Made by a program: the position numbers and the translations under genes
Shown: positions 60,441 to 60,884 of the stretch, piece by piece
Numbering within the stretch: position 1 is the first letter of the stretch
Layout: each line of letters starts with the position of its first letter
Notes under the pieces: model-generated
Told to the model about the DNA's origin: nothing
Seen by the model: only the letters and a program-made list of their open reading frames with translations
Database searches by the model: none
Assembly (NCBI GenBank): GCA_021818985.1
Contig: JAKASO010000004.1
Span: 1-64,000 of the forward strand
From: a bacterium
GTDB lineage: Bacteria > SZUA-79 > Acidulodesulfobacterales > Acidulodesulfobacteraceae
Direction of reading: 5' to 3'
Length of the DNA stretch: 64,000 nucleotides

Positions 60441-60473
60441 ACGCGCAACCTGCGCGTCTCATTTGCATGATTT

Positions 60474-60578
60474 TCAGGAATAGCAGGAATCCTTTATGCC
60501 GTAACTTTCCATCAGTACGATGTTGAATTCTTCTGCCGGAATTTCCCGAAATAATGGTGCTTCGTACCTGTTTTTCAT
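60474..60578 (-). CDS. 34-residue small ORF, candidate peptide precursor
   Basis: The ORF reads MKNRYEAPLFREIPAEEFNI followed by VLMESYGIKDSCYS and stops at TGA. AGGGGGTGG is seven bases upstream of the ATG, better than most genes here. The N-terminal YEAPLFREIPAEEF resembles the Y-x-x-P leader of RiPP precursors and the small YEKPE-type peptides of Firmicutes. The C-terminus is Cys/Ser/Tyr-rich. No radical-SAM, B1/B2, cyclase or protease gene is within the window, so modification is not supported. It is divergent from pal. I cannot assign a function. It is too short for statistical confidence. Confidence 0.5.
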   Translation of the reverse strand: MKNRYEAPLFREIPAEEFNIVLMESYGIKDSCYS

Positions 60579-60884
60579 TAATTAACCACCCCCTTTTTGA
60601 TTTTTGGAAAGCAAACTGCATTTCACTTATATACCGCTTTCTTTATATTAATTTATCACAATAAATTTTTTTTTTCAATATAATCTGTAAAAAAGTTATT
60701 GATTTTTTCTAAAATAATGATATATATAATTAGGTAATACAAATAATGTTTAAAATTGTCGGTGGGAAGCCCCTCTTCTTCAAATAAGGAATGAAAAAAA
60801 GTATTATGTTTATGTAATTTTTATTAATGTAGGCAGTAAATTTTTGAAGTTAATTAATTTTAATCTTAATGAGGAGTAAGACCA
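60579..60884. other. AT-rich intergenic region between the small ORF and pal
   Basis: This 306-base gap separates two divergent starts. It is very AT-rich except for a short GGTGGGAAGCCCC segment near 60760. A possible promoter for pal is TTGATT (60699) with TATATA about 16 bases on, giving a leader of about 150 bases. GAGGAG precedes the pal ATG. No RNA family or ORF was recognised. Confidence 0.4.

What the first reader, a model, noticed from the sequence alone, without database searches (positions are those of the whole stretch)
60474..60578. Undescribed 34-residue ORF with a RiPP-leader-like start and a Cys/Ser/Tyr tail
On the minus strand, AGGGGGTGG lies seven bases from an ATG opening MKNRYEAPLFREIPAEEFNI and ending DSCYS. 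The YEAP segment recalls Y-x-x-P leaders of ribosomally made, modified peptides. It lies in a 500-base gap with its own upstream region. It may be an orphan precursor or a structural small protein. No modification genes are in the window.
Basis: partly seen in the sequence, partly recalled or inferred. Interest (0 to 1): 0.58.

Follow-up and report, generated by a model that had tools for sequence, protein, structure and literature searches.

The report
Hidden selenocysteine in a peptide precursor
The tiny gene is real, but its apparent stop codon most likely encodes selenocysteine: it makes a 39-residue, selenium-containing peptide that a radical enzyme encoded elsewhere in the genome probably modifies, which no annotation model used here recognises.

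Summary
Relatives occur in 27 of 30 held genomes of the window's family (SZUA-79 / Ca. Acidulodesulfobacterales). The TGA that "ends" the ORF aligns with a cysteine of paralogues: the window reads ...KDSCYS-TGA-KSCK-stop, the paralogues ...KDSCYS-C-KSCK. In 24 of 24 distinct UGA copies the frame stays open and a bSECIS-like hairpin follows, against 2 of 10 Cys copies and 6 of 1817 TGAs in the window. Its stem covaries, and the genome has selA, selB, tRNA-Sec(UCA) and a UGA-containing selD. In relatives the gene follows a radical-SAM/SPASM gene and a PqqD-type RRE gene. The window lacks both, but its genome carries one of each elsewhere. The best reading is a selenocysteine-containing RiPP precursor with a YxxP leader and a CxxUxxC core, matured in trans. 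Sec-containing radical-SAM RiPPs have a precedent (SbtM); this is a different, unnamed family. The modification, the product and the function are inferred, not shown.

The parts
60586..60594 (-). Ribosome-binding site AGGGGGTGG, 7 nt before the ATG; most relatives read AGGAGGTGA or similar
   Evidence: sequence; relatives
60459..60578 (-). Precursor gene, 39 codons plus stop TGA: MKNRYEAPLFREIPAEEFNIVLMESYGIKDSCYS(U)KSCK
   Evidence: pN/pS
60486..60578 (-). Leader (residues 1-31; the boundary is inferred) with YxxP (Y5, P8) and EEF (16-18)
   Evidence: alignments A3 and A4
60462..60485 (-). Putative core CYSUKSCK (CxxUxxC), residues 32-39; the boundary is inferred
60474..60476 (-).
60441..60457 (-). 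bSECIS-like hairpin, 7-bp stem, AGGUU at the tip, 22 nt after the UGA; it begins just past the stop codon

Best explanation
The gene encodes a selenocysteine-containing precursor of a ribosomally made, modified peptide (RiPP). Step 1, strongly supported by sequence: the ribosome reads UGA 60474-60476 as Sec, guided by a SECIS hairpin just downstream and by SelA/SelB/SelC/SelD, giving a 39-residue peptide ending CYSUKSCK. Step 2, inferred from family motifs and gene order: the leader, through YxxP, docks on a PqqD-type RRE protein, which presents the peptide to a radical-SAM/SPASM enzyme. Step 3, inferred: that enzyme oxidises or cross-links the Cys/Sec core, most likely to a thio(seleno)ether or a thio(seleno)oxazole-type product. 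In this genome the two maturation genes lie on other contigs, so maturation would happen in trans. Step 4, a guess: the core is conserved and no export or peptidase gene was seen in the three-gene cassette, so the product is more likely a redox- or metal(loid)-handling peptide of the cell itself than a variable antibiotic. Approximate likelihoods: step 1 0.92, step 2 0.8, step 3 0.65 for any Cys/Sec modification, step 4 0.3.
For: Sec: UGA aligns with Cys of paralogues; 25 copies have the TGA and 10 have Cys at that site among 35 copies reaching it, in 30 genomes searched (three further rows are a pseudogene, a fragment and a chance match). After the UGA the codons read K 23/24, S/E/A, C 24/24, K 23/24, with synonymous changes (AAA/AAG, TCA/TCC/TCT, TGC/TGT); pN/pS 0.20 there. 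Hairpin in 24 of 24 UGA copies against 2 of 10 Cys copies, 6 of 1817 TGAs and 0 of 7 TGA stops of long ORFs in the window. The stem covaries: 89 of 89 cells paired, 3 of 6 pairs changed on both sides, covariation score not reached in 500 shuffles. Machinery in G000: selB 311 bits (cut-off 242), tRNA-Sec 69 bits (gathering 47; ARAGORN anticodon TCA), selA 563 bits, selD 353 bits with its own UGA in SAHGUGCK. RiPP: 19 of 35 copies have a PqqD gene at most 263 bp upstream on the same strand and 18 of those 19 a radical-SAM gene as well; PF04055 + PF13186 and PF05402 above Pfam cut-offs; the best PDB sequence matches of the PqqD proteins are lasso-peptide RREs, TfuB1 and TbiB1, of a class that binds YxxP leaders (PMC13381572, PMC12710340, passages). 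The radical-SAM model is nearest to peptide-modifying maturases: SkfB, SuiB, CteB, anSME (Foldseek); CteB, TigE, ChlB Z about 24.5-24.8. 22 of the 27 genomes with the precursor also have the cognate radical-SAM gene and PqqD (read).
Against: No selenium, peptide or transcript was measured. Five of 27 precursor-bearing genomes have no intact cognate radical-SAM hit: G004, G011, G014, G019, and G013 (fragments only); G004 is 97% complete in 7 contigs and also lacks the PqqD. In the window's genome the two maturation genes are unlinked to each other and to the precursor, and its PqqD is only 44% identical to the query. Seven of the 24 UGA copies fold at -6.7 to -7.1 kcal/mol over 42 nt, weaker than the -7.5 in the published bSECIS model, and in 3 of 24 the minimum-energy fold is a competing pairing. 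The hairpin lies past the stop codon, whereas bSECIS is usually inside the reading frame. Two Cys copies keep a hairpin.
Confidence: 0.75

Rival explanations
1. The UGA is an ordinary stop: the gene makes the 34-residue peptide and the Cys paralogues are merely longer.
For: UGA is the normal stop in this code, and the window's own true end is also a TGA. A 34-residue product would also arise whenever selenium is short.
Against: The four codons behind the UGA keep the residues of the Cys paralogues in 24 of 24 copies, with pN/pS 0.20. A covarying hairpin follows every UGA copy but only 2 of 10 Cys copies. Sec machinery is present.
Confidence: 0.06
2. A small selenoprotein that works unmodified, for example as a thiol/selenol redox or metal-binding peptide, with the neighbouring radical-SAM/PqqD genes serving something else.
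For: G004 keeps the precursor without detectable cognate maturases, and G013 keeps it beside radical-SAM fragments only. CxxUxxC is a plausible metal or redox motif by itself. Two loci sit by arsA/arsD/arsR and DsrE-like genes.
Against: Tight gene order radical-SAM -> PqqD -> precursor in 18 of 35 copies; the leader keeps YxxP; distant relatives of the same radical-SAM enzymes in other phyla also sit by peptides with Y..P and CxxCxxC.
Confidence: 0.15
3. A decaying orphan left behind when the maturation genes were lost from this locus.
For: The syntenic place in relatives (between the OmpA-like lipoprotein/bioC/bioF and glyoxalase/cupin genes) often carries the maturation genes, and the window has none.
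Against: The window copy keeps the start, RBS, frame, UGA, hairpin and every core residue, and pN is far below pS against all 29 other aligned copies. The maturase homologues are still in the genome.
Confidence: 0.08

Closest known systems
SbtM thio(seleno)oxazole RiPP system (NCBIfam TIGR04082 SbtM; Lewis et al. 2021, seen only as cited in PMC11002830 section 14 and in the reference list of PMC13188914)
   Same: Radical-SAM/SPASM maturase, short precursor with a UGA-encoded Sec and a SECIS element just downstream; SbtM (E 6e-40) or ACGX TIGR04340 is the best NCBIfam match of the three SZUA-79 radical-SAM proteins scanned.
   Different: Scores 107-138 bits, far below the 350 cut-off. The enzymes here are about 338 aa and match only SbtM positions 198-515 of 516. 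They use a separate PqqD protein. No NCBIfam model recognises the precursor.
Discrete-RRE lasso-peptide systems (TfuB1, TbiB1) and other YxxP leaders
   Same: YxxP leader; RRE proteins whose best PDB matches are TfuB1 and TbiB1; YxxP named as RRE recognition motif in PMC12710340 and PMC13381572 (passages).
   Different: Radical-SAM enzyme instead of a lasso cyclase; the core is CxxUxxC at the very C-terminus.
SkfB / CteB / SuiB-type radical-SAM/SPASM peptide maturases (sacti- and ranthipeptides, streptide)
   Same: Closest solved folds; Cys-rich core.
   Different: 16-21% identity in the alignments; no fused RRE; a Sec at the core in 25 of 35 copies.
Mycofactocin and PQQ (peptide-derived redox cofactors)
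   Same: Short conserved precursor, separate PqqD-type protein, radical-SAM/SPASM enzyme, conserved rather than variable core.
   Different: Mycofactocin maturase model 82-105 bits against a cut-off of 265 in the three enzymes scanned; no similar precursor.
Unnamed Cys-only relatives found here: Firmicutes peptides ending GNWCFGCTNCNCN and archaeal/Desulfobacterota/Nitrospirota-type peptides ending CRQCSSCHGCR
   Same: Radical-SAM relatives at 34-50% identity with a short Y..P leader / CxxCxxC peptide nearby.
   Different: No Sec in any found; different leaders and cores.

Membership tests
Bacterial selenoprotein | In-frame UGA aligned with Cys in homologues | tested here: met
   25 TGA and 10 Cys among 35 copies reaching the site
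[quoted passage not shown] 2 legend) | tested here: met
   Geometry met in 24 of 24 UGA copies; the window copy folds at -12.4 kcal/mol; the energy limit is missed by 7 of 24
Bacterial selenoprotein | selA, selB, selC (tRNA-Sec), selD in the genome | tested here: met
Bacterial selenoprotein | Selenium in the protein | not testable with these tools
   needs 75Se labelling or mass spectrometry
Radical-SAM RiPP precursor | Gene next to a radical-SAM/SPASM gene and an RRE gene in relatives | tested here: met
   18 of 35 copies with both
Radical-SAM RiPP precursor | Maturation genes in the window | tested here: not met
   0 tblastn hits in the window; they lie on contigs C83 and C5 of the same genome
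Radical-SAM RiPP precursor | RRE-recognition motif in the leader | tested here: met
   Y invariant and P nearly invariant in 16 copies; Y and P invariant across 19 peptides of three subfamilies
   S31, C32, Cys/Sec35 and C38 invariant in 16 copies
Radical-SAM RiPP precursor | Enzymatic modification of the core | not testable with these tools
   needs co-expression and mass spectrometry
SPASM maturase | CxxxCxxC plus seven SPASM cysteines (motif recalled) | tested here: met
   C23/C27/C30 and C251/C269/C306/C309/C315/C318/C336 invariant in 15 and in 18 sequences
SbtM thio(seleno)oxazole system | Radical-SAM protein above the TIGR04082 cut-off of 350 bits | tested here: not met
   107.3-137.5 bits in the 3 SZUA-79 enzymes scanned
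SbtM thio(seleno)oxazole system | Precursor recognised by an SbtA model | tested here: inconclusive
   No NCBIfam precursor hit; I could not establish which model, if any, is SbtA. TIGR04081, tried on a recalled number, gave no match over its cut-off and none at a precursor
Mycofactocin | Maturase above the TIGR03962 cut-off of 265 bits | tested here: not met
   82-105 bits in 3 enzymes
Lasso peptide | Lasso cyclase and B2 protease with the precursor | tested here: inconclusive
   Not seen among the conserved neighbours; not searched genome-wide

The most novel reading that the evidence does not exclude
A whole bacterial order makes a selenium-based, radical-SAM-modified peptide with an almost invariant CxxUxxC core. 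In this reading the UGA-encoded Sec is itself cross-linked or oxidised on a YxxP/PqqD-docked precursor, and the product is a conserved redox or metal(loid) cofactor-like peptide rather than an antibiotic, with maturases that can act in trans. Cys-only versions reach gut Firmicutes and archaea.
Probability: 0.3. Interest if true: 0.86.

Novelty: new variant of a known kind. Interest (0 to 1): 0.72.

Why it matters
Standard ORF callers would end this gene at the UGA or miss it, so a selenopeptide family of a whole order is invisible in annotation. Within one family the same core position switches between Sec and Cys, with the SECIS mostly lost when Cys replaces Sec: a natural comparison for what selenium adds to radical-SAM peptide chemistry. 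It also gives a second Sec-containing radical-SAM RiPP candidate beside SbtM, with a small stand-alone RRE that should suit in vitro work, and it exposes a wider, apparently unnamed Cys-only family.

Tried and rejected
Chance ORF: rejected. Phage or plasmid cargo: the viral-contig scans with the radical-SAM protein and with the precursor alignment, and one plasmid search, found no relative. Intrinsic terminator instead of SECIS: in the window the hairpin is followed by A, not U, on the coding strand, and the pattern scan lists no minus-strand terminator there. Maturase remnants in the window: none at E <= 0.05. Sec beyond SZUA-79: none. Among 386 genomes searched with profile A4, 28 matched, 27 of the window's family plus G030, which has Cys; the distant relatives whose peptides I could find are all Cys. 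That script looked at 46 of the 80 loci, and in part of them no peptide was found. Rfam over the window: only two tRNAs. TIGR04081 by number: no match over cut-off. Literature: searches gave no paper describing this family, in a library that lacks most subscription journals and preprint servers; core strings found only unrelated texts. Haft & Basu 2011 and Lewis et al. 2021 are not held. VIA-align lists at most 50 entries, so families absent there are not excluded.

Papers and what I saw: PMC11002830, section 14 whole and passages; PMC13188914, PMC13381572, PMC12710340, PMC4979651, PMC8326336, PMC9016710, PMC6776010, passages only; others in search listings only.

Full report
Observation. The ORF, ribosome-binding site, spacing and empty surroundings are as described. 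The window is G000:C30:1-64000 of a 1.62-Mb genome in 89 contigs. Relatives of the 34 residues are in 27 of 30 genomes of the same family and almost nowhere else; 30 of 61 genomes matched at E <= 1, three of these only by weak hits outside the family. A profile search again gave 27 of 30. Named public records matching neighbouring cassettes are SZUA-79 and Candidatus Acididesulfobacter diazotrophicus, i.e. the acid-mine-drainage group described in PMC6776010 (passages only).

The stop that is not a stop. Some paralogues do not end at DSCYS but continue CKSCK. In the window the DNA after DSCYS reads TGA AAA TCA TGC AAA TGA; with TGA as U it is DSCYSUKSCK-stop. Among 34 distinct copies with a readable site, 24 have TGA and 10 have TGC/TGT (counting without the distant G030 peptide). 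In the profile search, 25 copies have one TGA and 10 have Cys at that site; three more rows are a pseudogene with TGA and TAA (G018:C88), a fragment (G013:C24) and a chance match (G027:C121). Behind the TGA the residues are K (23 of 24), S/E/A, C (24 of 24), K (23 of 24), written with mixed synonymous codons. pN/pS is 0.33 for codons 2-34 and 0.20 for codons 36-38 over 30 aligned copies (pooled over all pairs, so not independent). Copies whose leader length differs were left out of that calculation.

SECIS. A hairpin with a 5-nt loop beginning NG[G/U], at least 4 bp with 3 G-C pairs, 16-37 nt after the UGA, is present in 24 of 24 UGA copies, 2 of 10 Cys copies, 6 of 1817 TGA triplets of the window in any frame on both strands (the window site itself meets the test), and 0 of 7 TGA stops of ORFs of 150 codons or more. 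These limits follow the bSECIS model quoted in PMC13188914 but were set after I had seen the family, so the contrast with the controls matters more than the 24 of 24. Over 19 distinct rows all 89 cells pair, 3 of 6 pairs show changes on both sides, no shuffle of 500 reached the covariation score, and slid partners drop to 8-67% paired. The window hairpin folds at -12.4 kcal/mol, z -2.6. Against: over 42 nt, 7 of 24 copies are weaker than the published -7.5 kcal/mol, and in 3 of 24 a competing pairing wins. The hairpin begins just after the stop codon because the tail is so short.

Machinery. G000 has selB (311 bits, cut-off 242; a 636-aa ORF), tRNA-Sec (69 bits, gathering 47; ARAGORN anticodon TCA), selA (563 bits, on the window's own contig, about 11 kb beyond the precursor) and selD (353 bits), which is itself interrupted by a TGA at the expected SAHGUGCK site. 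So the organism uses UGA as Sec independently of this finding.

RiPP context. In 20 stretches around copies, the two genes conserved most often were a radical-SAM/SPASM protein and a PqqD-like protein, each in 14 of 20. They match PF04055/PF13186 and PF05402 above Pfam cut-offs. Over 35 located copies (one a pseudogene), 19 have the PqqD gene upstream on the same strand within 263 bp, and 18 of these 19 the radical-SAM gene as well. By genome, 22 of 27 precursor carriers have a strong radical-SAM match (E below 1e-100) and the same 22 a PqqD match (E below 1e-10); the exceptions are G004, G011, G014, G019 and G013 (fragments). G024 has the radical-SAM gene cut by a contig end and no precursor found; G008 and G028 have neither. 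In the window's genome the radical-SAM gene is at C83:111845-112858 (74% identity to the query), the PqqD gene at C5:88403-88636 (44%), and a second precursor, Cys type, at C27:90967. The contigs' order is unknown, so 'in trans' means not in one operon. The window place itself is syntenic with loci that do carry the cassette, between the OmpA-like lipoprotein / BioC / BioF genes and glyoxalase-like / cupin-like genes.

Leader and maturase. The leader keeps Y-x-x-P and EEF. Across the three peptide subfamilies Y, P, F and CxxCxxC are invariant in 19 peptides. The PqqD proteins' best PDB sequence matches are the lasso RREs TfuB1 (E 0.0013) and TbiB1 (E 0.0006), weak but consistent; YxxP is named as an RRE recognition motif in PMC12710340 and PMC13381572 (passages). 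All radical-SAM and SPASM cysteines are invariant. A model of a relative's enzyme (mean pLDDT 87.5, pTM 0.87; the stretch with the first cluster motif, 24-34, is poorly predicted) is closest to peptide-modifying maturases: by Foldseek SkfB, SuiB, CteB and anSME lead (E 1e-15 to 1e-12; viperins follow at about 1e-11); by VIA-align CteB, TigE and ChlB, Z 24.4-24.8, with anSME, SuiB and SkfB about 23-24. A shared fold does not fix the reaction.

Comparison with the known. Sec-containing radical-SAM RiPPs are already on record: PMC4979651 (passages) says they had been proposed, and PMC11002830 section 14 reports that SbtM removes four hydrogens from Cys- and Sec-containing substrates and makes a thiooxazole. 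The three SZUA-79 enzymes scanned score 107-138 bits against SbtM's 350-bit cut-off, so this is like SbtM but not filed as SbtM. None of the precursor peptides scanned matched an NCBIfam family credibly, and the two window-family forms scanned matched no Pfam family credibly.

Function. Not established. The core is conserved and the cassette shows no transporter or peptidase among its conserved neighbours, which argues against a variable antibiotic. In two loci (L037, L038; G005, G023) the genes sit by arsA/arsD/arsR, a CRP-type regulator, a multihaem cytochrome and DsrE-like genes. That hints at metal(loid) or redox handling, but two loci of 20 first examined are only a hint.

Verdict. An overlooked selenocysteine codon turns an odd 34-residue ORF into a 39-residue Sec-containing RiPP precursor of a new, unnamed family; chemistry and role remain to be shown.

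Noticed in passing
G000:C30:76938-77867 (L195:16600-17685): selD of the window's genome is itself a selenoprotein gene (SAHGUGCK) and will be truncated or mis-started by ordinary annotation.
   Followed up: yes
L092, L093, L095-L102: In Firmicutes and other MAGs, a radical-SAM relative (44-50% identity) has a nearby peptide of about 40-53 aa ending in WCFGCTNC/WCFGCSNC-type tails, with no NCBIfam model.
   Followed up: partly
L054, L104, L107-L110, L112-L115, L117, L118: A further peptide subfamily ending [RKLV]QCS[SG]CH[GA]C with a YEKP-type leader behind radical-SAM relatives in archaea, Desulfobacterota, Nitrospirota-type MAGs, Actinobacteria and one Bacteroidales MAG; L117/G006:C33 shows it in SZUA-79 as a second, Cys-only cassette.
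   Followed up: partly
L119-L123, L129, L132: Gut Firmicutes radical-SAM relatives lie near longer proteins ending in (SSC)n-GGGGAD or GGCGGGGAD, another Cys-repeat type.
   Followed up: no
L037, L038: Two to three precursor paralogues (KDLCYSCKSCK or NSCCSCKSCK; NSCHTCRACF or NSCRTCRACF; KDSCYSUKECK) lie in one cluster, interleaved with a secreted DsrE-like protein and an unassigned secreted protein, beside arsA/arsD/arsR.
   Followed up: partly
G018:C88:12057-12164 (L050:6019-6093): A precursor pseudogene (TAA in the leader) beside an intact radical-SAM gene, while another contig of the same genome has PqqD plus an intact Sec precursor (L035).
   Followed up: no
G013:C22:1-308 (L007, L062): Intact Sec precursor about 80 bp from a fragment of the radical-SAM gene at a contig start; decay or assembly break, undecided.
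   Followed up: no
L018:2677-2796 (G005:C1:116617): A Cys-type copy (SCHTCRACF) that still carries an intact SECIS-like hairpin, like the Sec copy SCYVURACF of G005:C66 (L051): looks like a recent Sec-to-Cys change.
   Followed up: no
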